This document shows, in pieces, positions 2,660-58,416 of a stretch of 64,000 nucleotides of DNA. The DNA is from Chitinophagaceae bacterium 26-R-25 (GTDB lineage Bacteria > Bacteroidota > Bacteroidia > Chitinophagales > Chitinophagaceae): the NCBI GenBank assembly GCA_029906195.1, contig JARWSJ010000002.1, positions 248,001-312,000 on the forward strand. The letters are read 5' to 3'. The notes under the pieces are model-generated. The model worked only from the letters and a program-made list of their open reading frames with translations, had not been told where the DNA came from and ran no database searches. Position 1 is the first letter of the stretch. Each line of letters opens with the position of its first letter. The translations under genes and the position numbers were made by a program.

Positions 2660-2810
2660 AGTTGTTAGTTGATGGTTGATGGTTGTAGTTGTTAGTTGAT
2701 GGTTGCTAGTTATTAGGCTTCCACTGAATTTTCAGAAATAATTGTTGTTACCTCGTGTCGGTAAATTTGAATTATAAAGCCTAACAACCAACAACTATCA
2801 ACCAACAACT
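2660..2810. repeat. Inverted word-repeat element (word GTTAGTTGATG)
   Basis: The left arm 2660-2720 repeats gttagttgatggttg-like words in near-tandem and ends in TTAGGCTT. After a 56-nt unique spacer, AAGCCTAA (2777-2784) starts the right arm, which repeats the reverse complement (caaccaacaactatc-like) to 2810. The right arm stops exactly at the MazG-like stop codon (2811). This is the first of many similar elements in the window. Confidence 0.8.
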
Positions 2811-3137
2811 TTACTTCAGTTTATCATTTCCCTTATGCCTCTCCGCATCGCGGATATTTTTCTTTTCAAAATTCTTTTCCAGAGCTTCTGTCAGGTCGAC
2901 GCCGGTTTGATTGGCGAGGCAAATCAATACCCACAATACGTCCGCCATTTCATCAGCAATATGTTTGTTCTTATCACTTTCCTTAAAAGATTGTTCCCCG
3001 TAAGTTCTTACCATCAGCCGCGATAGCTCGCCCACCTCTTCCATTAAAATGCCAAGATTGGTAAGTTCATTAAAATATCTCACACCCACGGTTTTGATCC
3101 AGTTGTCGACTTGTGTTTGCGCGTCCTGAATGGTCAT
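2811..3137 (-). CDS. MazG-like nucleotide pyrophosphohydrolase
   Basis: 108 residues, a single all-alpha NTP-PPase domain. The metal-binding pattern is EEVGE (33-37) followed by DEMAD (62-66), which is the ExxE...ExxD signature of MazG/dUTPase-like enzymes. These cleave nucleoside triphosphates to the monophosphate and pyrophosphate and are usually house-cleaning enzymes for damaged nucleotides. The short length fits the stand-alone MazG-like group rather than two-domain E. coli MazG. It lies between two inverted word-repeat elements, in the same direction as dtd. Confidence 0.88.
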   Translation of the reverse strand: MTIQDAQTQVDNWIKTVGVRYFNELTNLGILMEEVGELSRLMVRTYGEQSFKESDKNKHIADEMADVLWVLICLANQTGVDLTEALEKNFEKKNIRDAERHKGNDKLK

Positions 3138-3164
3138 GTTGTTGTGTTTAAGTTGTTAAGGCGA

Positions 3165-3267
3165 GTTGAAAATTGAAAGTTGAAAATGCTTTGTGTGTTA
3201 CATTACTGAAATTAGAGCAGATATTTTTTTAGGCTCAATTTTCAATTTTCAACTTTCAATTTTCAAT
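3165..3267. repeat. Inverted word-repeat element (word GTTGAAAATTGAAA)
   Basis: Left arm 3165-3187 and right arm about 3236-3268 contain at least 22 bp of perfect inverted complement, separated by about 57 nt. The right arm overlaps the stop codon of dtd (3267-3269). About 30 nt of the right arm recurs almost unchanged at 51557-51588. Confidence 0.85.
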
Positions 3268-3719
3268 TACTCTCTGTTCTTGCTGTCTATAAAAATCGTA
3301 ACCGGCCCGTCATTCATCAGCTCCACCTGCATGTCTGCGCCAAACTCGCCGGTGCCAATGGTTTTGCCCAGGTCTTTTTCAAGTTGGGCGATCATTTTTT
3401 CATACAATGGAATTGCAATGTCCGGTTTGCTGGCTTTAATGTAAGAAGGGCGATTGCCTTTCTTTGTTGAGGCATGTAAAGTGAACTGGCTCACGAGCAA
3501 TATTTCACCGTTTATGTCTTTCACAGATACGTTCATCACACCCTGGTCATCATTAAAAATGCGCAACTGGATTAGCTTTCCGCTCAGCCATTCTATGTCT
3601 TCCTGCGCGTCTGCATCTTCAATTCCCAGCAGAACGAGCAAACCCTGTGCTATGGCAGATTTTTCCTTTCCTCCGATACTTACACTTGCTTTTGAAACTC
3701 TTTGAACTATTGCTCTCAT
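3267..3719 (-). CDS. dtd: D-aminoacyl-tRNA deacylase
   Basis: 150 residues from the ATG at 3719, the usual DTD length. The frame runs 21 codons further upstream, but the conserved start is MRAIVQRVSKASV. Catalytic motif SQFTL is at 77-81 and the cross-subunit Gly-Pro motif is in NDGPVT at 136-141; both define the chiral proofreading site that hydrolyses D-amino acids and glycine from tRNA. It is divergent from arfB, another translation-quality gene, with 47 bp between starts. Its stop codon lies inside an inverted word-repeat arm. Confidence 0.96.
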   Translation of the reverse strand: MRAIVQRVSKASVSIGGKEKSAIAQGLLVLLGIEDADAQEDIEWLSGKLIQLRIFNDDQGVMNVSVKDINGEILLVSQFTLHASTKKGNRPSYIKASKPDIAIPLYEKMIAQLEKDLGKTIGTGEFGADMQVELMNDGPVTIFIDSKNRE

Positions 3720-3766
3720 AAATAAACAATTGTACGTAAATTGTATATAAGACCAAAAGTAGTGAG

Positions 3767-4171
3767 ATGATAGATATAACACAGGAAATTAAATTTAAAA
3801 CCGCACGAAGCGGCGGAAAAGGCGGACAGAATGTAAATAAGGTAGAAACGATGGTGGAAGGGTATTTTCATGTAAATGATTCTGCACTGCTTACAGACGA
3901 TCAAAAACAATTGATTAACCACAAGCTGGCGAACAAAATAACCAGTGAAGGGTTTTTACAAACAAAGTCGCAGGTACATAGGAGCCAATTACAAAACAAA
4001 GCTGCGGTTATAAAAAAACTGCACCAAATGATTGCTGAGGCTTTTAAAAAGGAGAAAAAAAGAGTAGCCACAAAACCCTCTAAAGCGTCCAAGGAAAAAA
4101 GAATTGAAACCAAAAAGAAAGCAAGCCAGGTAAAAAGCGGAAGAAAGAGGATATCATTATCTGATTTTTAA
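3767..4171 (+). CDS. arfB: ArfB-type peptidyl-tRNA hydrolase (release factor homologue)
   Basis: 134 residues. The N-terminal catalytic domain carries GGQ at 19-21 within SGGKGGQNVNKVET, the peptidyl-tRNA hydrolysis loop of class I release factors. There are no codon-recognition domains; instead the C-terminus (about 95-134) is a long Lys/Arg-rich tail, as in ArfB/YaeJ/ICT1, which inserts into the empty mRNA channel of stalled ribosomes. The role is therefore rescue of non-stop complexes. It starts 11 bp upstream of the MbnP-like gene but is probably functionally unrelated to it. Confidence 0.93.
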   Translation: MIDITQEIKFKTARSGGKGGQNVNKVETMVEGYFHVNDSALLTDDQKQLINHKLANKITSEGFLQTKSQVHRSQLQNKAAVIKKLHQMIAEAFKKEKKRVATKPSKASKEKRIETKKKASQVKSGRKRISLSDF

Positions 4172-4181
4172 ACTCCCTAGA

Positions 4182-4970
4182 ATGAAAATTTTTATTAGTG
4201 CTGCCATTGCCACTGCTGCATTGTTCTTTACAAGCTGCCAACGAGAGGTAAAAAGCAGTGACGCATCATCCGGAGATTCCACACAGTTACCCACTTATAA
4301 GTTCGTATTAAGCTTCAAAGGAAAAGTTGACAATGCAGATCTGGCTTTCAACCAAACCTATCAAAACACATTTGGTGAATCGTATACCATCACCACTTTC
4401 AAATACTATATCGGCGATATCCAGCTGCTGAACAGCACTTCCGGCAAAGTGTACAATGTAAGCGACAAAACTTTTTATCTCGTGGATGCAAGCGATTCTG
4501 CTGCTTCCAACATCACGTTAAAAGCACCTGTAGGAACTTATGATGTGATCAATTTCACCATGGGCGTTGACAGCATATACAATGTGAGTGGCGCTCAGTC
4601 CGGCGATTTGGATCCAGTGAAGGGTATGTTCTGGACTTGGAACACGGGTTATATAATGGCGAAAATGGAAGGCACCTCGCCGTTGTCACATTTGCCGGAC
4701 AGCAGAATTCAGTTTCACATCGGCGGTTTTAAAACAGGCGAGAGTGTGATAAGAAGTGTTAATCTCACATTGCCAGAAGGCCGAACACTAGCGATATCAT
4801 CCCAAGGCGATAGCAAAGTGACGATCAATGCAGATGCAAATAAATGGTTTTACAACCCGCATGATATTCGCATTGCAGATACTGCTGTTTGTATGACGCC
4901 GGGTATATTGGCGACAAGCATTGCCGACAATTACGCGAAAATGTTTACCGTCTTTTCCGTTACCAATTAA
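4182..4970 (+). CDS. MbnP-like copper-binding lipoprotein
   Basis: 262 residues with a lipoprotein signal (MKIFISAAIATAALFFTSC, lipobox FTSC). The mature part matches the MbnP family by eye: YKFVLSFKGKVDNADLAFN, TTFKYYIGDIQLL, FYLVDASDS and GMFWTWNTGYIMAKMEG (W151 and W153). In Methylosinus the partner MbnH oxidises a Trp of MbnP to kynurenine, creating a high-affinity copper site. Here the adjacent gene, 9 bp downstream, encodes just such a di-heme enzyme, so the pair is likely to form a periplasmic copper-handling unit. No methanobactin genes are in the window. Confidence 0.85.
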   Translation: MKIFISAAIATAALFFTSCQREVKSSDASSGDSTQLPTYKFVLSFKGKVDNADLAFNQTYQNTFGESYTITTFKYYIGDIQLLNSTSGKVYNVSDKTFYLVDASDSAASNITLKAPVGTYDVINFTMGVDSIYNVSGAQSGDLDPVKGMFWTWNTGYIMAKMEGTSPLSHLPDSRIQFHIGGFKTGESVIRSVNLTLPEGRTLAISSQGDSKVTINADANKWFYNPHDIRIADTAVCMTPGILATSIADNYAKMFTVFSVTN

Positions 4971-4979
4971 CTACGCCGA

Positions 4980-6026
4980 ATGAGACTGATTGCGGTTATA
5001 CTAATTTTTATTTTGACCGGTATCGCCACTACCTGGGTGATCAGTTGTAAAAAAACAGGAGAGGGCGGCTCCCAAACTACGGCCTTGCAGGTGCAGATTC
5101 CTGCCGGGTTTCCCGCACCCAAATATAATTTTACCAACAACCCAATCACCAAAGAAGGCTTTGAACTCGGAAGACGTTTGTTTTACGATGGAAAATTATC
5201 AAAGGATGGCAATTTTCCCTGTGCCTCCTGTCACCAGCAGTTTGCGGCATTCTCCACGTTCGATCACGATCTAAGTCATGGCTTCAATAACCAGTTTACA
5301 ACAAGAAATGCTCCTGGACTTTTTAATATGATCTGGCTGGATCAGTTTCTGTGGGATGGCGGTGTTAACAACCTGGAAGTGCAGCCGCTCGCGCCCATTA
5401 CGGCACCAAATGAAATGGCCGAAGATATTGGCAACGTAGTAAAAAAGCTGCAGGCAGATGCGGCGTATCCTTCAATGTTTAAAGCGGCCTTCGGTTCTGA
5501 CCAGGTTACCAGTCAGAACATGTTGAAGGCGCTCACACAATTCGTTGCAATGATGGTTTCTGCTAATTCAAAGTATGACAAGGTAAAAAGAGGTGAAGCA
5601 CAGTTTAATGTTTCTGAGCAGGCGGGTTATGAAAGCTTTAAACAAAAATGTGCCGCCTGCCACCAGGAACCCTTGTTTACAGACCTGAGTTATAGAAACG
5701 ATGGTTTTTCAATAAATACTTCTCTCCATGACGTTGGCAGGATGCGTATTACAGGTAAAAGTGAAGATTCGCTGAAGTTCAAGGTCCCAAGTTTAAGGAA
5801 TGTTGCACTTACCGAACCCTACACGCACGATGGACGCATACTGTCTATCGGTCAGATGATTGATCATTACACAACGGGCATTATAAACAGCCCTACTTTG
5901 GATCCCTTATTGAAAAATGGTATTCAGATTGGCTACGCCGAAAAATATAATCTAATCGACTTCCTCAAAACGCTGTCCGATTCTTCGTTCATCGCGGACA
6001 CCCGATTCTCTCAACCGCAGCAATAG
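4980..6026 (+). CDS. MbnH-like di-heme cytochrome c peroxidase/MauG family protein
   Basis: 348 residues with lipobox VISC (residue 23). Two c-type heme motifs, CASCH (81-85) and CAACH (224-228), place it in the bacterial di-heme peroxidase/MauG superfamily, which shares the LGRRLFYDGKLSKDG, TRNAPGLFN and DVGRMRITG blocks. MauG-type members modify protein residues rather than reduce peroxide. Translationally coupled to the MbnP-like gene, it is best read as the enzyme that oxidises a Trp of that partner; this specificity is inferred from gene pairing. A classical peroxidase role cannot be excluded. Confidence 0.88.
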   Translation: MRLIAVILIFILTGIATTWVISCKKTGEGGSQTTALQVQIPAGFPAPKYNFTNNPITKEGFELGRRLFYDGKLSKDGNFPCASCHQQFAAFSTFDHDLSHGFNNQFTTRNAPGLFNMIWLDQFLWDGGVNNLEVQPLAPITAPNEMAEDIGNVVKKLQADAAYPSMFKAAFGSDQVTSQNMLKALTQFVAMMVSANSKYDKVKRGEAQFNVSEQAGYESFKQKCAACHQEPLFTDLSYRNDGFSINTSLHDVGRMRITGKSEDSLKFKVPSLRNVALTEPYTHDGRILSIGQMIDHYTTGIINSPTLDPLLKNGIQIGYAEKYNLIDFLKTLSDSSFIADTRFSQPQQ

Positions 6027-6219
6027 AAAAGGATAAAGTTTTGCCACCCAATGTTCAATGGTGTTATCTGCTGGTTTTGAAAACTAGAGTACAGGACGAA
6101 TTTAAAGGGATCCAAAAAAACTGCTAGGAAAGGTTTAATGATCAATGGTTTAGTGCACCCCTCGTAAACAAAGTTCTATCTAATTGATATTGAACGCTAC
6201 AGTGTTAGAACGCCTTTTT

Positions 6220-6237
6220 ATGCGTAGTTATACGCAT
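6220..6237. promoter_or_regulatory. Palindromic 7-4-7 site upstream of the signalling operon
   Basis: ATGCGTA (6220-6226) and TACGCAT (6231-6237) are perfect inverted 7-mers around GTTA. The site lies in the 292-bp gap before the operon that ends in a NarL-type regulator, a plausible place for an autoregulatory operator. The rest of the gap (6027-6318) shows no gene. Binding is inference. Confidence 0.4.
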
Positions 6238-6318
6238 TATTACAGAGCACAAGTACTAATGAATATTATCAGCTCTTGTACTACATTTCGCCATTAATTT
6301 TTATCTAAATTTTTTTGT

Positions 6319-6903
6319 ATGAAAAAAATGTTCTTTTTTTCTGTTTCCGCGCTCTTTGCAACTGCTTTTTTATTTTTAGGCTGTAGTAAAGATGTGCAGG
6401 AAAAAGAAATATCCGTAGACCGTAGCAACGTTGCGAATCACATTATTAGCGTGAAGCTTGCAAATTCATACACACACAAATTCAGGACTGTGTATGATAA
6501 ATATACTCAGTCACAAGGTGCAATGAAAAGTGCCAGTGTAGGAACGGCGGCCAGCGGTGGCGGGAGCTCGCTTGATCTGCCTATTGCGGAATCTTTTAAC
6601 AGGGACGTAATCGCTCTTCTTTTAAATCAAAAAGATGCAACCGGTGGTATTGCAGCAGGCATTCGCATGTATTATGGCATTAATGAAAACAACGAAGTTT
6701 GTCTTGTGTTGACGCCTTATGATAATAATGGCAAAGACATCATTAACAACTTGACGAAATCGGCTCCCGTTGCAATTAAATTGCCTGGCATTAGCACGGC
6801 GTCCGCACAAATCTCCGGCGAAGATGATGGTACAGTGATTGAAAGAGGCCAGCGTTGCCCTACAGTTTGTGATTTAGCAAGTCCGTTGTTGACCTTACCA
6901 TAG
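6319..6903 (+). CDS. Hypothetical lipoprotein of a two-component locus
   Basis: 194 residues; not recognised. The signal MKKMFFFSVSALFATAFLFLGC ends in lipobox LFLGC. The mature part has a Gly/Ser-rich stretch (ASGGGSS), a central region that looks alpha/beta (FNRDVIALLL, GIRMYYGINENNEVCLVL), and a tail with two close Cys in CPTVC that could form a disulfide. It is first of four closely packed genes (12 bp, then 1 bp, then a 1-bp overlap) ending in a histidine kinase and response regulator, so it may be a surface or periplasmic input to that pathway, or its target. Confidence 0.7.
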   Translation: MKKMFFFSVSALFATAFLFLGCSKDVQEKEISVDRSNVANHIISVKLANSYTHKFRTVYDKYTQSQGAMKSASVGTAASGGGSSLDLPIAESFNRDVIALLLNQKDATGGIAAGIRMYYGINENNEVCLVLTPYDNNGKDIINNLTKSAPVAIKLPGISTASAQISGEDDGTVIERGQRCPTVCDLASPLLTLP

Positions 6904-6915
6904 AACTCGTAACAC

Positions 6916-7605
6916 ATGAGAAGAACACTCTTTTTGTTTATACAAAGTAATTCGATTTTACTGCCTCTTATTCCGGGCCTGCTACGCTTTCCTTATATAG
7001 AGAAAAGCTACAGGCCCTTTATTGTGCTATTGTTGATCGGTTTTATTAACGAGATCATCAGTTTCATTTCCATTAGTATTTTTAAAACAAACGAAGTCTC
7101 GTCGAACCTTTACCTTTTAGCAGAAGCAATGTTTTTGTTTTATCAGTTTCACGTGTGGGGATTTTTAAAATCTAAAGACAAAGCCTTTTATCTATTTACG
7201 GGGTTGTTTGCTATTGTGTGGATCGTTGAAGAAATATGCTTTGGCCAAATAGCCAGCAACAGTCGCATTTTTGTGATCAGCTATTCTTTTGCCGTCACCC
7301 TTCTCGGCATCAATCAGATCAACTACATTATTATCCACGAAGACAGAAGACTCCTGCGCAATGGCAGGTTCATTCTGTGCATGGGCTTCATAATTTTTTA
7401 TATTTACCAAATATTATACGAAGGCGCATTGTATGTAAACCCTTATCTTGATGATAATTTAGAAACAAGTAACCTGATTATTCTATTTTTCGGGAACCTG
7501 AATTTTTTTGTGAATATTTTATATGCAATAGCAGTTTTTCTGATCCCGGTGGAAGCAAAACTTCCCTTTACTTTGGAAAAGCTGAACAATATGGAAAGGG
7601 GTTGA
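6916..7605 (+). CDS. Polytopic membrane protein of a two-component locus
   Basis: 229 residues with about six or seven hydrophobic segments and almost no soluble domain (for example YRPFIVLLLIGFINEIISFI and FILCMGFIIFYIYQILY). No family is recognised. The stop is directly followed by the histidine kinase start, so translation is coupled. The kinase itself has just one membrane segment and no sensor domain, which makes this protein a plausible signal-sensing subunit. That role is inferred from context only. Confidence 0.65.
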   Translation: MRRTLFLFIQSNSILLPLIPGLLRFPYIEKSYRPFIVLLLIGFINEIISFISISIFKTNEVSSNLYLLAEAMFLFYQFHVWGFLKSKDKAFYLFTGLFAIVWIVEEICFGQIASNSRIFVISYSFAVTLLGINQINYIIIHEDRRLLRNGRFILCMGFIIFYIYQILYEGALYVNPYLDDNLETSNLIILFFGNLNFFVNILYAIAVFLIPVEAKLPFTLEKLNNMERG

Positions 7606-7606
7606 C

Positions 7607-8347: not shown

Positions 8348-9024
8348 TGTCCCTGAACCACGACCAGATTAAATTAGTAATCGCAGACGATCATGAGATT
8401 TTTAGAGACGGTTTAGCGCTTATGCTAGGCAAGCAACCTAATATAGAGCTGGCAGCCCAGGCGGAAGACGGAAATGAATTGGTGGACATTGTGAAGAAGC
8501 ATGAGCCTGATGTTATTCTAACCGACATCAAAATGCCGCGGCTGGATGGCATTGCGGCCACCCAGGAAATACTTAAATTATATCCCGCTGCCAAGATCAT
8601 CGCACTTTCCATGTTCGATGAAGAAAGCCTTATCGTAGACATGCTGGAAGCCGGCGCCAAAGGCTATTTGCTTAAGAATGCTGACAAACAGGAAATACTC
8701 GATGCCATAACAGAAGTCTATAACGATAAAGTTTTCTATTGTCGTCATACCTCAGCAAGACTTGCCAGCCTTATCGTAAAGAGCAAATTCAATCCGCATA
8801 AAAAACAACAACTCCCTGCCTTCACCGACCGTGAAAAAGAAATTATCAAACTCATTTGCAAACAGCTCACCGCGCAGGAAATAGGCGAAAACCTCTTCCT
8901 CAGCAAAAGAACCGTTGAAGGCTACCGCATAAAAATTCTTGAAAAAATGAACGTAAAAAACACCGCCGGAGTAGTGGTGTATGCGTTGAAGAATAATTTG
9001 ATCAGTGAAGAGGAGCTGATGTAA
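8347..9024 (+). CDS. LuxR/NarL family response regulator
   Basis: 225 residues. Receiver domain with acidic pair DD (14-15), phospho-acceptor Asp60 in VILTDIKMP, conserved Ser (ALSMFDEE) and Lys (YLLKNA). C-terminal LuxR-type HTH (about 155-215: FTDREKEIIKLICKQLTAQEIGENLFLSKRTVEGYRIKILEKMNVKN). It is the last gene of the operon. Its stop codon begins an inverted word-repeat element that separates it from the convergent LytTR gene. Confidence 0.95.
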   Translation: MSLNHDQIKLVIADDHEIFRDGLALMLGKQPNIELAAQAEDGNELVDIVKKHEPDVILTDIKMPRLDGIAATQEILKLYPAAKIIALSMFDEESLIVDMLEAGAKGYLLKNADKQEILDAITEVYNDKVFYCRHTSARLASLIVKSKFNPHKKQQLPAFTDREKEIIKLICKQLTAQEIGENLFLSKRTVEGYRIKILEKMNVKNTAGVVVYALKNNLISEEELM

Positions 9025-9177
9025 GAATTAAGAATTAGGAATTAAGAATTAAGAATGCTTTATAGTTGAGTATCTCTGGATGTTACAAGACCTTCTCGTT
9101 AAACAGAAGTAATGGCTTTGAAATAGTAGCAACCAGCACACGCCGAATTCTTAATTCCTAATTCCTAATTCTTAATT
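9022..9177. repeat. Inverted word-repeat element (word TTAAGAA, period 7)
   Basis: Left arm 9022-9056 repeats taagaat/taggaat units with a 7-bp period and includes the stop codon of the response regulator. Right arm about 9147-9177 repeats the complement (attcttaattcctaa) and ends 3 bp before the stop codon of the convergent LytTR gene. About 90 nt of unique sequence lie between. It could act as a two-way terminator, though no T-run follows. Confidence 0.85.
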
Positions 9178-9179
9178 GA

Positions 9180-9920: not shown

Positions 9921-10000
9921 AGTTGAGAGTTGAGAATTGAGAGTTGAGAATGGAAGGTTGAAAAATTTAACTCTCAACTCTCCATTCTCAACTCTCAACT
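9921..10000. repeat. Inverted word-repeat element (word GTTGAGA, period 7)
   Basis: Left arm 9921-9953 is built of gttgaga/attgaga heptads. Right arm 9971-10000 repeats ctcaact-type heptads. About 17-18 bp pair perfectly around a short spacer of about 28 nt. It fills the gap between kinase stop (10005) and regulator start (9911), so it lies inside what would be a single transcript. Confidence 0.85.
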
Positions 10001-16486: not shown

Positions 16487-16580
16487 GGCTGAATAACTGA
16501 ATGACTGAATAACTGAGTAACTAACAACTATCAACTAACAACTATTCTGGAGGACTTCAGTTATTCAGTTATTCAGTTAT
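16487..16580. repeat. Composite inverted word-repeat element (words CTGAATAA and GTTAGTTG)
   Basis: Left arm 16487-16517 repeats ctgaataa/ctgaatga octads, continues as taactaacaactatc-like words (16518-16545), and after a short spacer the arm 16556-16580 repeats ttcagttat units complementary to the first word. The second word is the complement of that seen at 2660-2720, so two word families meet in one element. Confidence 0.8.
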
Positions 16581-20353: not shown

Positions 20354-20464
20354 AGAATAACCAATAACTGAATAACTGAATGACTGAATAACTGAGCGTT
20401 TCTGTTTAACAGTAGTGTTGGCTTCCAACCTTCAGTTATCCGGTTAATCAGTTATTCAGTTATT
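20354..20464. repeat. Inverted word-repeat element between divergent genes (word CTGAATAA)
   Basis: Left arm 20354-20395 repeats taactgaa/tgactgaa octads and right arm 20431-20464 repeats the complement, with about 35 nt between. It lies 12 bp upstream of the desulfurase start and 8 bp upstream of mce, that is between two divergent starts. A plain terminator role does not fit here. Confidence 0.85.
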
Positions 20465-20472
20465 TTTGACCC

Positions 20473-20880
20473 ATGAGAAAAATCGAACACATTGGAATTG
20501 CGGTGAAAAGCTTGTCAGCCGCTATTCCGCTATACGAAGCCTTACTGAATACCGGATGTTACAAAACCGAAACTGTTGAAACTGAGATGGTGAACACGGC
20601 CTTTTTCCGGACAGGTGAGAGTAAAATAGAACTGCTTGAAAGTGCTGATGAGCAGGGTGTTATTGCAAAATTTATTGAAAAAAAGGGAGAGGGGATACAT
20701 CATATTGCCTTTGATGTAGCCGATATTCATGCCGAAATGGCGAGATTGAAAGCGGAGGGCTTTACGCTATTAAACGAAGTGCCTAAAAAAGGCGCCGACA
20801 ATAAGCTTGTTTGCTTTGTACATCCCAAGGGAACGAGTGGAGTGCTGGTGGAGCTGTGCCAGGAGAGGAGTGAAAAGTAA
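20473..20880 (+). CDS. mce: Methylmalonyl-CoA epimerase
   Basis: 135 residues, a two-module vicinal-oxygen-chelate fold. Metal ligands are expected at His6 (IEHIGIAV), the His of HHIAFDV, and Glu in GVLVELCQ near the end. It interconverts (2R)- and (2S)-methylmalonyl-CoA in propionate/succinate metabolism. The mutase genes are not in this window. The last codons (ERSEK and stop) coincide with the start of a GTGAAAA word-repeat, so the C-terminus beyond GVLVELCQ is repeat-derived. Confidence 0.92.
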   Translation: MRKIEHIGIAVKSLSAAIPLYEALLNTGCYKTETVETEMVNTAFFRTGESKIELLESADEQGVIAKFIEKKGEGIHHIAFDVADIHAEMARLKAEGFTLLNEVPKKGADNKLVCFVHPKGTSGVLVELCQERSEK

Positions 20881-20971
20881 AAAGTGAAAAGTGAAAAGTA
20901 AAAACCGCTTACTACCCTGTGAACCTTTAGCACTGGAACCTTTTTTGACTTTTGACTTTTTAATTTTGACT
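20870..20971. repeat. Imperfect inverted word-repeat element (word GTGAAAA, period 7)
   Basis: Left arm 20870-20904 repeats gtgaaaa/gtaaaaa heptads, beginning inside the coding end of mce. Right arm about 20941-20971 repeats ttttgac/ttttaat. Left words read GTGAAAA and right words complement to GTCAAAA, so pairing is imperfect. It ends 4 bp before the rnc stop. Confidence 0.7.
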
Positions 20972-20974
20972 TAG

Positions 20975-30960: not shown

Positions 30961-31071
30961 TGACTGAATGACTGAATAACTGAATAGCTGAATAACTGAG
31001 TGGTTCCAAATTCGGTCAGTCACTCGCTTTATCAACAACTCAGTTATTCAGTTAATCAGTTATTCAGTTAC
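30961..31071. repeat. Inverted word-repeat element (word CTGAATAA)
   Basis: Left arm 30961-31000 repeats tgactgaa/taactgaa octads and right arm 31039-31071 the complement, with 38 nt between. The same word occurs at 16487-16580 and 20354-20464. The right arm contains the stop codon (31068-31070) of the lipoprotein gene. Confidence 0.85.
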
Positions 31072-32278: not shown

Positions 32279-32470
32279 GTGAATGGTCAAAGATGAATCG
32301 TGAAAGGTGAATGGTGAAATCTTGATAAATGACCAGTTATAGTGAATGTTTTACCATTCAATAGTTGCGAATTCCCCAGTCACCTTCCTCTAACCAGGAC
32401 TTTCTGGAGAAAGTTATTCACTCAACAATCCGAATTCACGTTTCACCTTTGACGATTGCCCATTTCCGAT
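32279..32470. repeat. Degenerate inverted word-repeat region
   Basis: The left part (32279-32321) repeats gtgaatggt/gtgaaaggt/gtgaaat-like words. The right part (about 32430-32470) carries ttcacgtttcaccttt. Arms are diverged and the spacer is long (about 110 nt). Possibly a decayed member of the family seen elsewhere. Confidence 0.4.
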
Positions 32471-36913: not shown

Positions 36914-37287
36914 GACGTTTAACATGTCGCCCCTCTGGGGCTGGTATTTGGTTCGCGATAACGCAATAATGTTGCTACTGACGTGTCGCCCCGCTGGGGC
37001 TAGTTGGAACATTCAAAAAATGTAGATCAACCCAAGAGGGCAACATGTTAGTAGAAAAGTAAACACCGTTAAACACAAACCAAGCCCCAGCGGGGCGACA
37101 CGTTAGTAGTAGCAGAAAGAAAAGAATTTGGAACATTAGAGCCAGCCCCGGAGGGGCGACATGTTAGTTGCAATAAACAATGTCGAAAAATGAAGGCCAG
37201 CCCCAGAGGGGACGACGCGTTAGTAGAAGAAAAAGAAAGAATTTGAACCATTAGAGTCAGCTCCAGCGGGGCGACATGTTAAACGTC
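36914..37287. repeat. Seven-copy inverted array of CATGTCGCCCC units
   Basis: Two copies (36920-36944, 36978-37003) read as AACATGTCGCCCC..GGGGCT and five (37031-37051, 37083-37106, 37144-37167, 37199-37223, 37259-37282) in reverse. The outer ends, GACGTTTAACATGTCGCCCC and its complement, form near-perfect terminal inverted repeats. Each unit contains its own GCCCC/GGGGC hairpin. Spacing is irregular and orientation flips, so it is not CRISPR. Confidence 0.85.
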
Positions 37288-37387: not shown

Positions 37388-37418
37388 ATGATTCACGATT
37401 CACGATTCATCATTCACC
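37388..37418. repeat. Half word-repeat (word ATTCACG, period 7)
   Basis: Four near-tandem heptads attcacg/attcacg/attcatc/attcacc end 1 bp before the stop codon of the lipoprotein gene at 37420. No opposite arm is found nearby. Confidence 0.65.
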
Positions 37419-43782: not shown

Positions 43783-43791
43783 ATGTGGAAG

Positions 43792-43898
43792 AACGCTTAA
43801 CGCCGAACGCCGAACGCCGAACGCTTAACGCCGAACGCCCCGATTCATGTCTTGATGAACCGGGCGTTCGGCGTTATGCGTTTGGCATTATGCGTTTG
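43792..43898. repeat. Inverted word-repeat element (word CCGAACG, period 7)
   Basis: Left arm 43792-43839 repeats gccgaac/gcttaac heptads; right arm 43861-43898 repeats gttcggc/gttatgc. The spacer is only about 20 nt. It sits between convergent genes and ends 2 bp before the murF-alr stop; GC-rich words here contrast with the AT-rich ones elsewhere. Confidence 0.85.
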
Positions 43899-50528: not shown

Positions 50529-50560
50529 TTTTTTACTTTTTACTTTTTCCTTTTTGATTT
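50529..50560. repeat. Half word-repeat (word TTTTTAC, period 7)
   Basis: ttttttactttttactttttcctttttgattt: tandem heptads with no opposite arm nearby; 18 bp before the pirin terminator hairpin. Confidence 0.5.
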
Positions 50561-51491: not shown

Positions 51492-51511
51492 TGTTTTTCC
51501 TTTAGTTGTTT

Positions 51512-51588
51512 GTTGTTAGTTGATAGTTGTTAGAAGTCACCGAAAGTGGCAGCCCTCATTTTCAATTTTCAACTTTCAATTTTCAATT
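51512..51588. repeat. Mixed word-repeat element (GTTGTTAGTTG, then TTTTCAATTTTCAAC)
   Basis: The left part 51512-51533 has the word family of 2660-2720. The right part 51557-51588 matches the right arm at 3236-3268 over about 30 nt. The two parts are not complementary to one another, so this looks like two half elements joined. The right part supplies the stop codon of the second pirin (51583-51585). Confidence 0.75.
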
Positions 51589-52296: not shown

Positions 52297-52404
52297 ATAT
52301 TAAACTCCTTTTTATTTTAGTGTTTAAACATCAATTAGTGTACCAATGGATAAATAACCGGCAAAACTGCCAGCTTGTCGGCAAATATCCAACGCTCTAT
52401 GCAA

Positions 52405-52469: not shown

Positions 52470-52489
52470 GCTGTAAAATATAGTTGCTA

Positions 52490-53278: not shown

Positions 53279-53297
53279 GTATTATAATTTAAGAATA

Positions 53298-53321
53298 AAG
53301 CCTGCTGACAACAACAGGCTT
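53298..53321 (-). terminator. Weak terminator-like hairpin upstream of scpA
   Basis: AAGCCTG (53298-53304) pairs with CAGGCTT (53315-53321), and a G-U pair extends the stem on the minus strand. The following bases TTTATTCTT are only moderately U-rich. It may end the DUF3078 transcript about 175 nt before. Confidence 0.45.
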
Positions 53322-53392
53322 CACAAAAATATACTATTTACCAGGGTGCATAACATTTTTTTTGATCCGGGATTTCAAGGACTGTGCTTTAT

Positions 53393-53494
53393 TTGAAAAT
53401 TTGAGAATATGAGAATTTGAAAATGCTTTCGGTGCGGCTTTCATTTTCAAATTTTCAAATCCTCAAATTTTCAAATTGTTAAGATTTTCAAATT
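53393..53494. repeat. Inverted word-repeat element (word ATTTGAAAATTTGAGA)
   Basis: Left arm 53393-53424 and right arm 53441-53494 carry atttgaaa/attttcaaat words, period about 8. The right arm ends 2 bp before the stop of the DUF3078 gene. Similar words are at 58268-58416. Confidence 0.8.
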
Positions 53495-53495
53495 G

Positions 53496-54428
53496 CTAAA
53501 ACTTTACAGCTATTCCAACGCCCACGTTCTCACGCAATTGCGTGCGCGGCGAGTCGTGGTTGGGGCCAAAAACACGAACATCGTCGTCATAAATAATGTC
53601 CAGCGCTACACTCGCGGTCAGCCACTTGTTGACCTTTAATGCCAGCAGGTTTGTAAAATACAGATCCACATTTTGCGGATTATGCTGGTAATTAGAGAAG
53701 AGGTCGAGTCTGGACTTATACACCACATTTTTCATGATCTCGTGCATGTAATTTATGGTCATAAATGCACCTATTTCATTACGAACGTGTTTGCCGGTAT
53801 CCACGCCGTATGCTCCTTTTGCGGAAAGGTCATTATCGGTAACAAACGTCCAGCGGGAAGTTAGCGGTGACACAAAAATGGTAAAATAGTCCGTTGGCCT
53901 GAAGTCAATACCGGCAGAAAGAAGCAGGTAGCCCGGAGACATGAAGTTTGATATTTTTTCCACCGTCGTATCGTTTGGATAATTGTAACCGGCGGTAAAC
54001 TGGCTTCGGAAATTCACCAGTCCGCTCAAATACCATTTCGGTGCCAGTTCGTATCCGTACTTGGAATAAAGATCTATCTTATCGTTGCTTTTTCGCATAC
54101 CCAGCGACGTTGTTTTCACATAGCCAAGGCCAAGGTCCAGGGTATTATCCCAGGTATGTCTTCCTTTTTTATAATAACCATATAAACTCAGGATACTATT
54201 AAAGTTGATTGACAGTTCATCGCCACCCGCGGCCCAGTTTGAAAGAGATGTCTGTCCAAAAGTGAGGGAAAATAGACCGCCTACCTTCCAATTTTTTGGA
54301 ATTGTATCATTCGGATCTTTTTTAATCGTTCTGTTGCTTTCTGATTGTAAACCTTTGATCGTTTGGTCCTGTGCAAATAGCCAACCCGTCATCAATACCA
54401 GGCTACATGCGAGTAATGCTTTTTTCAT
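53496..54428 (-). CDS. DUF3078 outer-membrane protein
   Basis: 310 residues, signal MKKALLACSLVLMTGWLFAQ. Contains the DUF3078 blocks WKVGGLFSLTFGQTSLSNWAAGGDELSINFNSILSLYGYYKKGRHTWDNTLDLGLGYVKT and a long beta-rich barrel-like C-terminus ending VGVGIAVKF, an aromatic BAM-type end. Family common in Bacteroidota envelopes; role unknown, though its length and strands suggest a 12- to 14-stranded barrel. It is monocistronic, bordered by word-repeats on both sides. Confidence 0.88.
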   Translation of the reverse strand: MKKALLACSLVLMTGWLFAQDQTIKGLQSESNRTIKKDPNDTIPKNWKVGGLFSLTFGQTSLSNWAAGGDELSINFNSILSLYGYYKKGRHTWDNTLDLGLGYVKTTSLGMRKSNDKIDLYSKYGYELAPKWYLSGLVNFRSQFTAGYNYPNDTTVEKISNFMSPGYLLLSAGIDFRPTDYFTIFVSPLTSRWTFVTDNDLSAKGAYGVDTGKHVRNEIGAFMTINYMHEIMKNVVYKSRLDLFSNYQHNPQNVDLYFTNLLALKVNKWLTASVALDIIYDDDVRVFGPNHDSPRTQLRENVGVGIAVKF

Positions 54429-54446
54429 AATGATTGTGTTTAATGT

Positions 54447-54550
54447 AATTAATAATTAATAAAGAATAATTAATATGGGCAGCGCTCTGTCAAGATTGCT
54501 GCCAACCATGAAAGGCTGCACTATTAATTATTAATTATTAACTATTAATT
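54447..54550. repeat. Inverted word-repeat element (word AATTAAT, period 7)
   Basis: Left arm 54447-54475 repeats aattaataattaataa; right arm 54522-54550 repeats tattaattattaatta. The spacer of about 46 nt contains a GC-rich stretch. It lies 18 bp upstream of the DUF3078 gene start and 35 bp past the mscL stop. Confidence 0.8.
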
Positions 54551-54585
54551 GTCAAAGAGGTAATTCAATAATGTAAACCAGTTGC

Positions 54586-54999
54586 CTACTTCTTCAGCCC
54601 ATCTCTTATTTCCATCAACAATTTATCTGTGCTGGAAGGCTCTGCAGGAGCAGCAGGAGCTTCTTTTTTCAACCTGTTAAGACCTTTTACTACCATAAAT
54701 AATACAAAGGCTATGATGAGGAAGTTGATAAATACCTGGATGAAATTTCCCCAGGCGAATATTGCGGCGCCGGCTTTTTTGGCCGCATCGTACGTGGGGT
54801 AATGCGAGCCATCGAGGGAAACAAATTTGTCGGTAAAACTGATACCATTCAGGAGCACGCGGGAGATGATCGGCATCAGGAGGTCATTTACAATTGAGTC
54901 AACGATCTTTCCAAAGGCGGCACCAATAATAACACCTATTGCAAGATCCATTACGTTGCCCTTCATGGCAAATTCTTTAAACTCTTTTACAAAGCCCAT
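54586..54999 (-). CDS. mscL: Large-conductance mechanosensitive channel
   Basis: 137 residues. N-terminal amphipathic helix, TM1 ([31 protein letters not shown], containing the conserved GxIIGxAFGKIV), an extracellular loop, TM2 ([27 protein letters not shown]) and a C-terminal cytoplasmic helix. It opens at near-lytic membrane tension to release osmolytes. Length is typical. Confidence 0.97.
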
Positions 55000-55330
55000 A
55001 GTAGTTCAATTTTTATTGTTTAATCAAATTTCTATTATTACAAATAGCTTAAAGCAATGTTGAGGATGCTGGATCAATTACTGCGGTTAGGTATTACGTT
55101 TACATTTCGAAGAATTGAAATGTATGGTTTCCGTTTGCGACAAATGTATATAAAAAAAATGTTCGGCTAATCAGCTCAGCATCATTATTATATCAATCAC
55201 CGTATTTTACATGCGAACTGCTTTGGTAAATAATCAACGCTTTCCAAAGGCAACTGGGTAATTTTCTTCCTGCCGCCAAATAAAAATGCCGGCATTGCGC
55301 CGGCACCTTATAATCTATGTTTCAATCAGG
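55000..55330. other. 331-bp spacer between mscL and frr
   Basis: No gene seen. It contains an 8-bp inverted repeat TACATTTC (55101-55108) / GAAATGTA (55117-55124) about 100-125 bp upstream of mscL, and the frr terminator at 55282-55305. The remainder is AT-rich promoter-like sequence. Confidence 0.6.
55282..55305 (-). terminator. Rho-independent terminator after frr
   Basis: TGCCGGC (55287-55293) pairs with GCCGGCA (55299-55305), loop ATTGC. The minus-strand tail reads ATTTTTA. It lies 26 nt past the frr stop. Confidence 0.85.
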
Positions 55331-55894
55331 CTAGATGGCCATGATCTCTTTTTCTTTTGTTGCAAGATGTTTCTCAATCTGGGCTATATATTTATCTGTG
55401 ATAGCCTGGATATCTTTCTCGGCGTCTTTTGCAGCGTCTTCGCTCAAGCCATCTTTCTGCAATTTTTTAATCATCTCAATTGCATCTCTGCGGATATTGC
55501 GGATAGAGACTTTTGAAGCTTCTCCTTCACCATTGGCTCTCTTTACAAATTCTTTACGACGCTCTTCCGTAAGTGGGGGAAGGAACAGGCGAATGATCAA
55601 TCCATCGTTTTGTGGATTTAAACCAATATTTGAATTGATGATAGCTCTTTCGATTGGTTGAAGCATGTTCTTCTCCCATGGCTGAATGGTCAGGGTACGC
55701 GCATCTACCACAGATACATTGGCAACTTGCGCAAGCGGAGTAGCTGAACCGTAATAGTCTACGGTAATGCCGTCAACTATTTGAGGGTTTGCCTTGCCGG
55801 CGCGTATTTTAGTTAATTCACTTTCCAGGTGTTTAATCGCCTTGCTCATAGACGATTCTGTATCATCCATTATTATTGCTAATTCATCAGACAT
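55331..55894 (-). CDS. frr: Ribosome recycling factor
   Basis: 187 residues, full length. Blocks: HLESELTKIRAGKANPQIVDGITVDYYGSATPLAQVANVSVVDARTLTIQPWEKNMLQPIERAI, NIGLNPQNDGLIIRLFLPPLTEERRKEFVK, and NIRRDAIEMIKKLQKDG. It separates ribosomal subunits after termination together with EF-G. The neighbouring pyrH gene, often adjacent, is not present. Confidence 0.97.
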   Translation of the reverse strand: MSDELAIIMDDTESSMSKAIKHLESELTKIRAGKANPQIVDGITVDYYGSATPLAQVANVSVVDARTLTIQPWEKNMLQPIERAIINSNIGLNPQNDGLIIRLFLPPLTEERRKEFVKRANGEGEASKVSIRNIRRDAIEMIKKLQKDGLSEDAAKDAEKDIQAITDKYIAQIEKHLATKEKEIMAI

Positions 55895-55913
55895 AGTGCT
55901 AATATTAATGGCG

Positions 55914-55921
55914 CAAATCTA
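55914..55921 (-). promoter_or_regulatory. Promoter -7 element of frr
   Basis: On the minus strand TAGATTTG (55921-55914) exactly matches TAnnTTTG, 20 bp before the frr ATG. No obvious -33 TTG at the ideal distance. Confidence 0.5.
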
Positions 55922-55946
55922 ATGTGAATTTTGTAAGTATTTATAA

Positions 55947-56055
55947 GTAAAAATTAAAAAATCAAAATTCAAAAAAATGAGCCGCCTGCCATTTATAAAA
56001 TAGCTTCGTTTAGAAGGCGTGCCTGAATTGCTTTTGACTTTGATTTTTACTTTGA
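55947..56055. repeat. Imperfect inverted word-repeat element (word TCAAAAT/TTTTGAC)
   Basis: Left part 55947-55977 repeats aaaattaaaaaatcaaaattc-like words and right part 56030-56055 repeats ttttgactttgattttta. Pairing is partial. It ends 2 bp before the stop of the WecA/MraY-like gene. Confidence 0.6.
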
Positions 56056-56057
56056 CT

Positions 56058-57185
56058 CTACTTCTGCTCTAACACGGAATCCTTTGTCAATGGAACTATT
56101 TTGGTAGAAAGAGCATTGCTTTCAACCGAGCCCTTATGCAGGTTCGCCACAAACAATCTTGGGCGTTTGGTCTTTTGCAAAATGCCGATTCCAACAAAGA
56201 AAGCCGCACTGATGCCCAACACGAGCAAAGTGCAATTTACAGAAGGTGAAAAATAAGCTGAAGCGATGATGACAATAATATTAGCAGCAACTAATGTAAG
56301 AACGATGTTTCTGTGGGATAAACCTCTATCGAGTAACAAGTGATGAATGTGATTTCTATCGGGGCTAAACGGTGAACGTCTTTTAAGCATTCTTATACTG
56401 AATACCCTCAGTGTATCGAGCAATGGAATGAACAACAAAGCGATTCCAATGGCTGGACCGCTGCTCATTGGCATTGTAGACGTTTCTGATACATTAATAA
56501 ATTTGATCACCAATATGGAGTTGATCAGGCCGATAAGCAGCGAGCCTGTATCACCCATGAATATTTTTGCAGGCTGGAAGTTGAAAAGCAGGAACGCAAC
56601 CAGTGCGCCGGCAAGTGAAAATGCAAGTATGGAATAAGCTGTTTCTCCAACCTGAAGCATATAAATACCAACAAGTGCAGATACCATCAAACCAAGACTT
56701 CCGGCAAGACCATCAATGCCATCAATAAGATTGAAAGAGTTGATCACCACAAGAATTGTAAAATAAGTAAGCAACAGGCTGTACATTTCAGGCAATTCAT
56801 GAATGCCCAGGAAGCCATGCATGCTGTTAATTTGAATTCCTCCTTTATAGATTACGATAAAGGCTGCCAATACCTGGCCAATGAATTTTTTTATTGGGGA
56901 GAGAATAAGAATGTCATCTTTAATACCAAGAAAGAAAATAACAAGAGTAGCGGCAATGAAATATTGCATTTCGCTGGATTGAGCAAAGTTCGTACTAAGC
57001 ATGCAGCCAAACACAAAACCAGCAAAAATGCCAAGGCCGCCCAATGAAGGAATCGGCGTTGCGTGTACCTTTCTTTCGTCAGGTACATCATACAATTTTT
57101 TGATTTTGGCAACCTTAATGATGATTGGTATAGCCAAATAAGAGACTGCAAAAGAGATAGATAAGCTTAGTATTACATCTAACAT
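56058..57185 (-). CDS. Undecaprenyl-phosphate sugar-1-phosphate transferase (WecA/MraY family)
   Basis: 375 residues from ATG 57185 (MLDVILSLSISF); a TTG eight codons upstream overlaps the promoter. About ten membrane segments with DDILILSPIKKFIGQ (aspartate-rich DD motif), NLIDGIDGLAG, MGDTGSLLIG and the His-rich RNHIHHLLLDRGLSH loop. It joins a UDP-sugar phosphate (likely UDP-GlcNAc) to undecaprenyl-phosphate, starting O-antigen, capsule or teichoic-like chains. It is not murein MraY by its loop sequence. No glycosyltransferase operon lies beside it. Confidence 0.92.
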   Translation of the reverse strand: MLDVILSLSISFAVSYLAIPIIIKVAKIKKLYDVPDERKVHATPIPSLGGLGIFAGFVFGCMLSTNFAQSSEMQYFIAATLVIFFLGIKDDILILSPIKKFIGQVLAAFIVIYKGGIQINSMHGFLGIHELPEMYSLLLTYFTILVVINSFNLIDGIDGLAGSLGLMVSALVGIYMLQVGETAYSILAFSLAGALVAFLLFNFQPAKIFMGDTGSLLIGLINSILVIKFINVSETSTMPMSSGPAIGIALLFIPLLDTLRVFSIRMLKRRSPFSPDRNHIHHLLLDRGLSHRNIVLTLVAANIIVIIASAYFSPSVNCTLLVLGISAAFFVGIGILQKTKRPRLFVANLHKGSVESNALSTKIVPLTKDSVLEQK

Positions 57186-57206
57186 AAGGTTTAATTGATT
57201 GCGGTA

Positions 57207-57214
57207 CAAAAATA
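57207..57214 (-). promoter_or_regulatory. Promoter -7 element of the WecA/MraY-like gene
   Basis: Minus strand TATTTTTG (57214-57207) exactly matches TAnnTTTG, 22 bp before the ATG at 57185. The best upstream TTG is slightly too far. Confidence 0.5.
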
Positions 57215-57376
57215 TACTTTAAGTTGGATAACCCTTGGTCAAAGTGCTCTGATAACTAAAAATTTTTATTCGTCTAATGGTTTACCATGATATTAGATAG
57301 GAACGCCAGGGAAAAATACGATGCAAATAAAGTACCACATCCTTTTATGATGGAAAACTTTAATGTATTCAAATTG

Positions 57377-57407
57377 TTGGTATAAATTTTTTTAAAGATT
57401 AGATTTG
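57377..57407 (+). promoter_or_regulatory. Promoter of the transketolase N-terminal gene
   Basis: TTG (57377-57379), 20 bp, TAGATTTG (57400-57407), a full match to the Bacteroidota consensus, 21 bp before the ATG at 57428. Confidence 0.75.
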
Positions 57408-57427
57408 TTAAACTCAACACTTTACAT

Positions 57428-58273
57428 ATGCCTACACTACAAGAAACAGCATCTCAGATAAGAAGAGATATTTTGAGAATGGTACACGGCGCAAACAGTG
57501 GGCATCCCGGCGGTTCTTTAGGCTGTACTGAATTTTTTACGGCACTTTACTTTAAAATAATGAAGCATAACCCATCCTTTTCGATGGATGGAAAAGGAGA
57601 AGATATTTTCTTTTTGTCCAATGGACATATTTCACCAGTTTTCTATGCAACTCTCGCAAGATCAGGATATTTCAATTTAAAAGAATTAAACACATTTAGA
57701 AAAATAGATTCCCGTCTTCAAGGGCATCCAACTACTCATGAACACCTTCCCGGTATTCGCGTGGCCAGTGGATCTTTGGGGCAGGGCATGAGTGTTGCCA
57801 TTGGAGCAGCACTCGCAAAAAAGCTTAACGGCGACCCGCAAACCGTTTTTACACTACACGGAGACGGGGAATTGGATGAAGGGCAAAACTGGGAAGCTTT
57901 AATGTTTGCAGCACACCACAAAGTGGACAATCTGATTTCAACTGTAGACTGGAATGGACAACAAATTGACGGCCCAACCGCAAAAGTGATGAATTTGGGT
58001 AACCTTGCGGATAAATTTACTTCGTTTGGCTGGGAAGTAATTCGTCTCGAGGACGGGAATAACATGGATCTCGTGGTGAGCACCATTGAAAGTGCGAAAA
58101 CATTTTTAGGGAAGGGAAAACCTATTGCCATCATGATGCACACTGTTATGGGCAAGGGTGTGGACTTTATGGAAGGCCACCACGAGTGGCACGGCGTAGC
58201 ACCGAACGATGAACAATTGGCTAAAGCGTTGTCGCAGATACCGGAGACGCTGGGCGACTATCCGGCAATTTGA
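57428..58273 (+). CDS. Transketolase, N-terminal subunit
   Basis: 281 residues, the length of the N-terminal (thiamine-diphosphate binding) half. Blocks HGANSGHPGGSLGCTEFFTALYF, LSNGHISPVFYATLARSG, LQGHPTTHEHLPGIRVASGSLGQGMS, the ThDP/Mg motif GDGELDEGQNWEA...NLISTVDWN and TVMGKGVDFMEG. The C-terminal subunit, which completes the active site, is expected next but is absent: the next gene is on the other strand. It must be encoded elsewhere if the enzyme works. Own promoter; the stop codon lies at the start of a word-repeat arm. Confidence 0.94.
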   Translation: MPTLQETASQIRRDILRMVHGANSGHPGGSLGCTEFFTALYFKIMKHNPSFSMDGKGEDIFFLSNGHISPVFYATLARSGYFNLKELNTFRKIDSRLQGHPTTHEHLPGIRVASGSLGQGMSVAIGAALAKKLNGDPQTVFTLHGDGELDEGQNWEALMFAAHHKVDNLISTVDWNGQQIDGPTAKVMNLGNLADKFTSFGWEVIRLEDGNNMDLVVSTIESAKTFLGKGKPIAIMMHTVMGKGVDFMEGHHEWHGVAPNDEQLAKALSQIPETLGDYPAI

Positions 58274-58416
58274 AAATTTGAAGATTTGAAGATTTGAAAA
58301 TGGGAGGTGTGTCTTGCATTATGGATTTTCAACTCTTCGAATGTTCAGAAATTAAGTAGTCATTTTGGTGGTTGACAATAAAGAATTATCAAATTTCCAT
58401 ATTTTCAAATTCCCAC
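58268..58416. repeat. Degenerate inverted word-repeat element (word ATTTGAAG, period 8)
   Basis: The left arm 58268-58301 repeats atttgaaa/atttgaag octads and overlaps the stop codon of the transketolase subunit (58271-58273). The right arm is split, 58321-58348 and about 58387-58416 (ttttcaaat words). Arms are diverged. Confidence 0.65.

What the first reader, a model, noticed from the sequence alone, without database searches (positions are those of the whole stretch)
2660..58416. Window-wide family of inverted word-repeats with period 7-8
At least 14 intergenic spacers (2660, 3165, 9022, 9921, 16487, 20354, 20870, 30961, 43792, 51512, 53393, 54447, 55947, 58268 and others) have the same plan: a 7- or 8-bp word in near-tandem, a unique spacer of about 20-110 nt, and the reverse complement of the same word. 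The words differ between loci (GTTGAGA, TTAAGAA, CTGAATAA, CCGAACG, AATTAAT, ATTTGAAG), so architecture is conserved while sequence is not. I know of no named element with this design. Chromosomal hairpins of this size can affect termination, mRNA stability, or local replication; a transposon-like or slippage origin is also possible.
Basis: seen in the sequence. Interest (0 to 1): 0.75.

Follow-up and report, generated by a model that had tools for sequence, protein, structure and literature searches.

The report
Four-word hairpins behind bacterial genes
In the part of this bacterium's genome that was examined, about one in five gaps between genes holds a hairpin-shaped DNA element whose two arms are most often four copies of a 7- or 8-letter word, usually just behind a stop codon; the design resembles little-studied repeats known from Xanthomonas and cyanobacteria, but here about a dozen word families coexist and differ at the same place between related species.

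Summary
Of the 14 listed sites, 12 have matching inverted arms, one (55947) is degenerate and one (51512) has arms from two word families. In the 864 kb examined, 105 of 511 spacers hold such an element, against 0 in each of 10 shuffles; only periods 7, 8 and 9 yield them in number. The words are not free: they fall into about a dozen recurring classes, most often with four units per arm, one polarity and class-specific loop sizes. An end lies within 10 bp of a stop codon in 70 of 113. Between species at 86-90% gene identity the same spacer may keep, lose, nest, hybridise or switch family in both arms. Closest known are the GGGAATC inverted pairs of Xanthomonas and cyanobacterial heptamer hairpins, so 'no named element' is only partly right. 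No target-site duplication or autonomous copy was found; a terminator role was tested indirectly and not supported.

The parts
2660..2810 (.). GTTGTTA-family (period 7) element, between co-directional genes; left arm doubled (2660-2711), right arm 2783-2810
   Evidence: inverted score 18 against shuffled maximum 11
3166..3268 (.). TTGAAAA/GTTGAAA-family (period 7) element abutting the stop codon of the minus gene at 3267; G001 carries the GTTGAGA family here
9022..9177 (.). AATTAAG/AATTAGG-family (period 7) element filling the spacer between two convergent stop codons; AATTAAT family in G001
9921..10000 (.). GTTGAGA-family (period 7) element; TTGAAA family in G002
16489..16580 (.). AATAACTG-family (period 8) element; its loop holds a lone right arm of the GTTGTTA family (16519-16545), of which a complete nested copy is seen in G001
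20355..20464 (.). AATAACTG-family (period 8) element, between divergent genes by my gene caller (start positions are rough)
20869..20972 (.). AAGTAAA/AGTCAAA-family (period 7) element between convergent stop codons
30960..31070 (.). AATAACTG-family (period 8) element abutting the stop codon of the minus gene at 31068
43791..43898 (.). GAACGCC-family (period 7) element between convergent stop codons; missed by the automatic caller
   Evidence: inverted score 19 against shuffled maximum 10
51502..51588 (.). hybrid: left arm GTTGTTAG family, right arm TTTTCAA family, not complementary; G001 has the same two arms plus a piece of a GTTGTTA right arm between them and GTTGAGA-type words outside
53391..53500 (.). 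ATTTGAAA-family (period 8) element, loop 18 nt (83 and 88 nt in the orthologues)
54446..54550 (.). AATTAAT-family (period 7) element seen in all three congeners
55949..56055 (.). degenerate AAGTAAA/TCAAAAT-family element; a clean copy stands in G001
58267..58419 (.). ATTTGAAG-family (period 8) element between convergent stop codons, right arm degenerate; a clean copy stands in G001

Best explanation
The spacers carry chromosomal, interspersed hairpin elements: two inverted arms, most often of four 7- or 8-nt units (two to three when the period is 9), around a variable loop, with one strand of the word, the one richer in stop codons, entering the hairpin from both sides. Shown: architecture, non-randomness, recurring word classes, modal count of four, polarity within this genome, stop-codon adjacency, and between congeners nesting, hybrid arms and change of family in both arms. 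Inferred: (1) new elements arise mainly by copying of existing arm pairs rather than by independent slippage at each locus; (2) copies settle in or beside existing 3'-end hairpins and deletions then remove pieces, giving nesting, hybrids and turnover; (3) arms stay complementary by hairpin-templated correction or by selection on pairing; (4) as RNA they form a long stem behind the stop codon, so their commonest effect is on mRNA 3' ends (stability, pausing or read-through blocking), while many copies are simply tolerated there. The copying enzyme is unknown.
For: Loop length depends on word class (Kruskal-Wallis p=3.9e-7). In the AATTAAG class arms at different loci share the order of their unit variants (pair sharing 0.21, expected 0.036; left arms alone 0.27 against 0.040) and in the TTGAAA class less strongly (0.15 against 0.063; left arms alone 0.09 against 0.066). 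One arm 22-mer has 288 exact copies here, 124 and 110 in two congeners, and occurs in 6 of 294 family genomes. Four full units in 85 of 144 period-7 arms and 34 of 70 period-8 arms. Neighbouring assigned arrays within 250 bp, 116 pairs: 96 '><' same family, 8 '><' different, 12 direct, 0 '<>'; 45 of 338 arrays were unassigned and left out. Of 73 co-directional elements 61 lie nearer the stop and 48 at or within 10 bp of it (0.66 against 0.26 by random placement); 18 of 25 convergent ones have both arms within 20 bp of a stop. Where this genome and G001 both have an element (41 spacers): 24 same family, 13 changed in both arms, 4 mixed; with G002 (38): 24, 11, 3; four of the 13 are to unrelated words. 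Nested and hybrid cases. In same-family orthologues arms are 0.95 identical, loops 0.75, flanks 0.93 (biased, since arms were picked for family match).
Against: No shared unit order beyond expectation in the AATAACTG class (0.067 against 0.069) and too few arms in the GTTGTTA class (14; left arms 0). No target-site duplication (6 bp or more: 4 of 114 observed, 7.65 expected); no autonomous copy found in 864 kb; loops of one class mostly unrelated (22 of 576 pairs score 24 or more). Nine of the 13 changes against G001 are between words one substitution apart (GTTGAAA/GTTGAGA, AATTAAG/AATTAAT), as in-place drift would also give, and at spacer 73313 (window numbering continued) the loop survived the change (0.61-0.69). 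With two unit variants, an exact three-unit 22-mer can also recur without copying. Canonical terminators are equally frequent with and without elements. Fifteen of 113 elements stand between divergent genes.
Confidence: 0.42

Rival explanations
1. In-place origin: a short palindrome grows by 7-8 nt slippage and hairpin-templated repair copies every change to the other arm; word classes are attractors of this process and nothing is dispersed.
For: Heptamer excess in bacteria is known and slippage has been proposed for it (PMC4679880 section 3, PMC4692102 section 16). The AATTAAG word occurs as single arrays in contigs assigned to several phyla, and in another genus of the family the AATAACTG word forms long uniform arrays. 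Nine of 13 changes against G001 are one-substitution changes. Unit order is not shared in the AATAACTG class.
Against: Shared unit order in the AATTAAG class; changes of period or to an unrelated word (118788, 123642, 130034, 210666; one with a poor class score); nested complete elements; no arrays at periods 4-6, where slippage is usually easier (general knowledge).
Confidence: 0.34
2. Conventional MITE or REP-type elements moved in trans by a transposase that binds the word array.
For: Inverted ends, intergenic, nested, differing between congeners; class-specific inner boxes next to the arms (by eye only).
Against: No target-site duplication; Y1-transposase matches at two places, one with an open frame, 1 IS110-type match and 4 reverse-transcriptase matches in the whole genome (other transposase families were not searched); interiors hardly conserved.
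Confidence: 0.1
3. Selected bidirectional transcription terminators whose arm sequence is free as long as it pairs.
For: Behind stop codons, strong folds, often A-rich 5' arm and T-rich 3' arm. [quoted passage not shown]
Against: Canonical terminators are not rarer in element spacers: convergent 11 of 24 against 29 of 61, co-directional 9 of 68 against 42 of 282 (home-made scanner, spacers of 40-600 bp). Fifteen of 113 elements stand between divergent genes. Free pairing predicts neither recurring words nor a modal four units.
Confidence: 0.1

Closest known systems
GGGAATC heptamer repeats of Xanthomonas (PMC4692102; sections 10, 15, 16 and passages read)
   Same: 7-nt units, clear preference for four units, intergenic, very close to or overlapping the stop codon, 70 and 75 inverted convergent pairs in two genomes, sequence variation at the same gene pairs between species, none on the plasmids of one species
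   Different: one G-rich word type, its four units linked there to the four G-tracts of a quadruplex; here about a dozen word classes, no arm with four G- or C-tracts (0 of 228), periods 7, 8 and 9, pairing common, families differing at the same spacer between congeners
STRR heptamer hairpins of filamentous cyanobacteria (PMC2670836, passages read)
   Same: usually 7-bp repeats forming hairpins in spacers such as hupS-hupL and upstream of hoxW, the latter close to the 3' end of the preceding gene
   Different: few loci in the passages seen; no census of inverted pairs or of family change seen there
Degenerate heptanucleotide hairpin of the Nostoc tRNA-Leu intron P6b (PMC3488679, passages read; Costa 2002 not read)
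   Same: heptamer repeats of the region pair into a hairpin; two classes of repeat motif occupy this hairpin in different genotypes
   Different: a single intron locus
TAACTGA heptamer repeats (PMC4679880; abstract, sections 3 and 12, passages read)
   Same: a closely related word (AATAACTG here, period 8), mostly intergenic, also in five Bacteroidetes
   Different: direct arrays, mostly just upstream of start codons, only one inverted case in the main genome studied

Membership tests
Xanthomonas-type inverted heptamer pair | tandem 7-nt units, preference for four | tested here: met
   85 of 144 period-7 arms have four full units; also 34 of 70 period-8 arms
Xanthomonas-type inverted heptamer pair | close to or overlapping the stop codon | tested here: met
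   70 of 113 elements have an end at or within 10 bp of a stop; 48 of 73 co-directional ones
Xanthomonas-type inverted heptamer pair | convergent inverted pairs | tested here: met
   96 of 116 neighbouring array pairs are '><' of one family, 0 are '<>'
Xanthomonas-type inverted heptamer pair | G-rich unit able to form a quadruplex | tested here: not met
   0 of 228 arms hold four G- or C-tracts of three
MITE | terminal inverted repeats | tested here: met
   114 inverted pairs
MITE | target-site duplication | tested here: not met
   4 of 114 against 7.65 expected at 6 bp or more, boundaries allowed to move 6 bp
MITE | autonomous relative with the same ends | tested here: not met
   in 864 kb, two '><' same-family pairs of otherwise single arrays 250-5000 bp apart: one without a gene, one around a gene with a sub-threshold GH99 match; the rest of the genome was not examined for this
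MITE | conserved interior within a family | tested here: inconclusive
   22 of 576 within-class loop pairs score 24 or more against 0.17% with shuffled partners and 0.54% between classes
REP/BIME with RAYT | resident Y1 transposase flanked by the repeat | tested here: inconclusive
   Y1 matches at two places, one open frame; two single period-9 arrays lie near it, none of period 7 or 8 at the score used
REP/BIME with RAYT | GTAG- or CGTC-tagged palindrome | not tested
   feature known from the title and abstract start of PMC3733652 in a listing only
Intrinsic terminator | ends transcription; substitutes for canonical terminators | tested here: inconclusive
   no depletion of canonical terminators in element spacers; no RNA data

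The most novel reading that the evidence does not exclude
A widespread, unnamed class of hairpin elements whose arms are written by a copying process with a 7-9 nt ruler and a count of about four units. It overwrites one word family with another at the same spacer in both arms, needs neither target-site duplication nor a linked transposase, and its four-unit preference holds for words that cannot form quadruplexes, so the published quadruplex link for Xanthomonas would not be the general cause.
Probability: 0.17. Interest if true: 0.85.

Novelty: new variant of a known kind. Interest (0 to 1): 0.6.

Why it matters
[quoted passage not shown] A genome with about a dozen coexisting word classes, close relatives for comparison and frequent change of family at the same spacer makes an old curiosity testable: how such repeats arise, spread and shape 3' ends. 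The four-unit preference in arms without G-tracts argues against quadruplex formation as its general cause.

Tried and rejected
Rejected or not supported: chance or base composition. CRISPR-like arrays: arms inverted, no array of spaced identical repeats seen. Known RNA families: at Rfam's gathering scores only the tRNA in the window. RAYT, IS110 or reverse transcriptase as an abundant mobiliser: Y1 matches at two places, 1 and 4 matches. Autonomous transposon between distant arms: none of two candidate pairs. Terminator substitution: no depletion of canonical terminators. Clean empty sites: 9 short-empty comparisons were printed; at least 6 keep word scraps or hold another element, and by eye none shows a duplication. 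Literature: listings showed no named element with this design in Bacteroidota; the P. gingivalis MITE with a minisatellite (PMC4596501) was seen in a listing only; PMC4666352 was seen in passages and not used. Searches looked for words as strings: 28 found no paper; one found six papers, all by the one 12-mer term, on unrelated subjects by title.

Limits: my gene caller is home-made, so start positions are rough. Word classes were set by eye, elements went to the nearest class (threshold 0.75), a few assignments are blurred, and polarity labels came from left arms. 'In one species only' means below the caller's threshold, not proven absence; one change in G000-G002 (20428) and one in G001-G002 (101120) involve a word outside my classes. 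G001 and G002 are named by exact contig length only.
Full report
CHECK. The window lies in a 6.51-Mb genome (G000, contig C2:248001-312000). Two genomes of the same genus, G001 and G002, share it in synteny at about 90% and 86% mean gene identity; their contig lengths equal those of Pinibacter aurantiacus MAH-26 and P. soli MAH-24 in a named collection, so the genus is taken as Pinibacter. I examined 864 kb: C2:1-240000, C2:248001-472000 and C1:1-400000. Tandem arrays above a fixed score exist at periods 7 (124), 8 (57), 9 (7) and 14 (60), with 1 at 12 and 2 at 15, none at 4-6, 10, 11 and 13, and none in one shuffle. Strict inverted pairs number 99, with one period in both arms each time; a looser caller gives 114. 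Per spacer: 105 of 511, against 0 in each of 10 shuffles.

ANATOMY. The words recur. Of 114 elements, 113 go to 13 word classes set by eye and one is unassigned; the largest are AATAACTG (24), TTGAAAR (21), AATTAAG/AATTAGG (16), GTTGTTA (11) and AATTTGAA (9); one class has a single called element. Four full units are the mode at period 7 (85 of 144 arms, median 29 nt) and at period 8 (34 of 70, median 33 nt), two at period 9 (10 of 14, median 23 nt). Polarity is strict here: of 116 neighbouring assigned array pairs within 250 bp, 104 are '><' (96 of one family), 12 are direct and none is '<>'; 45 of 338 arrays were unassigned and left out. It is not universal: three loci, representing two of the genomes of another genus of the family and including two overlapping fetches of one place, show the reverse order, as does a third genome's locus (L217/L224, L220, L227). 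Loop length depends on class (p=3.9e-7). In the entering direction the first 27 nt of an arm close on average 2.40 reading frames with stop codons, against 0.99 leaving and 1.77 in shuffled left arms. Folding is strong (z below -2 in 109 of 114), which is partly expected since the elements were picked for inverted arms.

PLACE. Contexts of 113 elements (one lacked a neighbour): 73 co-directional, 25 convergent, 15 divergent; background spacers of 80 bp or more: 299, 84, 95. Element ends lie a median 4 bp from a stop but 62 bp from a start. Seventy of 113 have an end at or within 10 bp of a stop. Of 73 co-directional elements 61 lie nearer the stop, 48 at or within 10 bp (0.66 observed, 0.26 expected). 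C1:203-385 kb, which contains TraG and TraJ genes of a CTnDOT-type conjugative element (its borders were not determined), has 4 arrays over 182 kb with 84 spacers of 100 bp or more, against 51 arrays in the 203 kb before it with 95 such spacers. This suggests that elements belong to the resident chromosome.

EVOLUTION. Where G000 and G001 both carry an element (41 spacers) 24 keep the family, 13 have changed in both arms and 4 are mixed; G000-G002: 24, 11, 3 of 38; G001-G002: 15, 7, 2 of 24; called in one species only: 24, 49 and 32 spacers. Nine of the 13 changes against G001 are between words one substitution apart, which in-place drift could explain; four are not. Loop identity: same-family orthologues median 0.65 (14 of 62 at 0.51 or less), changed 0.44 (23 of 28 at 0.51 or less), random pairs 0.34 with a 95th percentile of 0.51. 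So loops mostly change with the family, but at 73313 (window numbering continued) the loop stayed (0.61-0.69). Nested elements (16481; 84531) and hybrid arms (51491; 20880 in G002) are seen directly. In same-family orthologues arms, loops and flanks are 0.95, 0.75 and 0.93 identical; this leans to the arms, which were picked for family match.

COPY OR SLIPPAGE. If arms were copied, unit variants should keep their order between loci. Recounted without self-pairs: AATTAAG class 0.21 shared against 0.036 expected (20 arms; left arms alone 0.27 against 0.040), TTGAAA class 0.15 against 0.063 (28 arms; left 0.09 against 0.066, right 0.24 against 0.072), GTTGTTA class 0.07 against 0.013 (14 arms; left 0), AATAACTG class 0.067 against 0.069 (23 arms). 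The signal is clear in one class, moderate in one and absent or untestable in two. One 22-mer arm has 288 copies here, 124 and 110 in the congeners, and occurs in 6 of 294 family genomes; an AATAACTG 24-mer occurs in 7 of 294. Against copying stand the missing target-site duplication and mostly unrelated loops. I keep copying ahead of slippage by a small margin.

RANGE. Twenty 20-kb samples of 18 relatives gave elements in 4 samples from 3 genomes. Those 57 loci hold 133 single arrays and 17 elements, but they were chosen by that pattern and many are metagenome bins. The hairpin form seems to be one mode of a broader heptamer-repeat phenomenon.

FUNCTION. If elements replaced terminators, canonical ones should be rarer beside them; they are not (convergent 11 of 24 against 29 of 61; co-directional 9 of 68 against 42 of 282; in 8 of 20 element spacers with a terminator it lies in the loop). 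A post-stop RNA hairpin acting on stability or read-through remains my inference.

KNOWN. Xanthomonas (GGGAATC)n repeats share the four-unit preference, stop adjacency, inverted pairs and variation between species (PMC4692102). Its authors note that four units match the quadruplex minimum and could not identify a regulatory role. Arms without G-tracts here (0 of 228 with four G- or C-tracts) make that link unlikely as a general cause. Cyanobacterial STRR hairpins (PMC2670836), the Nostoc P6b heptamer hairpin with two repeat classes (PMC3488679) and TAACTGA repeats (PMC4679880) are the other relatives. Verdict: real, a new variant of a known but unexplained kind.

Noticed in passing
G000 C1:203000-385000 (within L031-L040): Region containing TraG/TraJ genes of a CTnDOT-type conjugative element that is almost free of word arrays (4 over 182 kb, 84 spacers of 100 bp or more); it may help to date the elements.
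   Followed up: partly
window 37083-37281 and the loop at G000 C2:69799 (L004): A 55-bp tandem repeat with AGCCCCAGAGGGGCGACACGTTAGTAG; a similar sequence sits in the loop of a word element elsewhere, so it may be another dispersed repeat.
   Followed up: no
spacers at 84531, 97213, 111143, 120185 (window numbering continued downstream): Further inverted word elements with mixed 8/9-nt spacing (CACTAAGG, ACAGAGGA, CGCAAAG, CACTGATTT), read by eye, which the strict period caller partly misses; true numbers are probably higher.
   Followed up: partly
L074 (G000 C1:2603987-2607187): The one Y1 (RAYT-like) transposase match with an open frame has two single period-9 arrays nearby, one of the CATGATTTT class; a possible link for the period-9 class only.
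   Followed up: no
window 32279-32319, 37390-37417, 50530-50555: Lone one-armed arrays (GTGAAAG, GATTCAC, TTTTTAC), possibly remains of elements.
   Followed up: no
L145 (metagenome-bin contig labelled Rickettsiales, 8 kb): Four inverted word elements with four different 7-nt words in 8 kb; possible hairpin-rich genome in another phylum, if the bin is clean.
   Followed up: no
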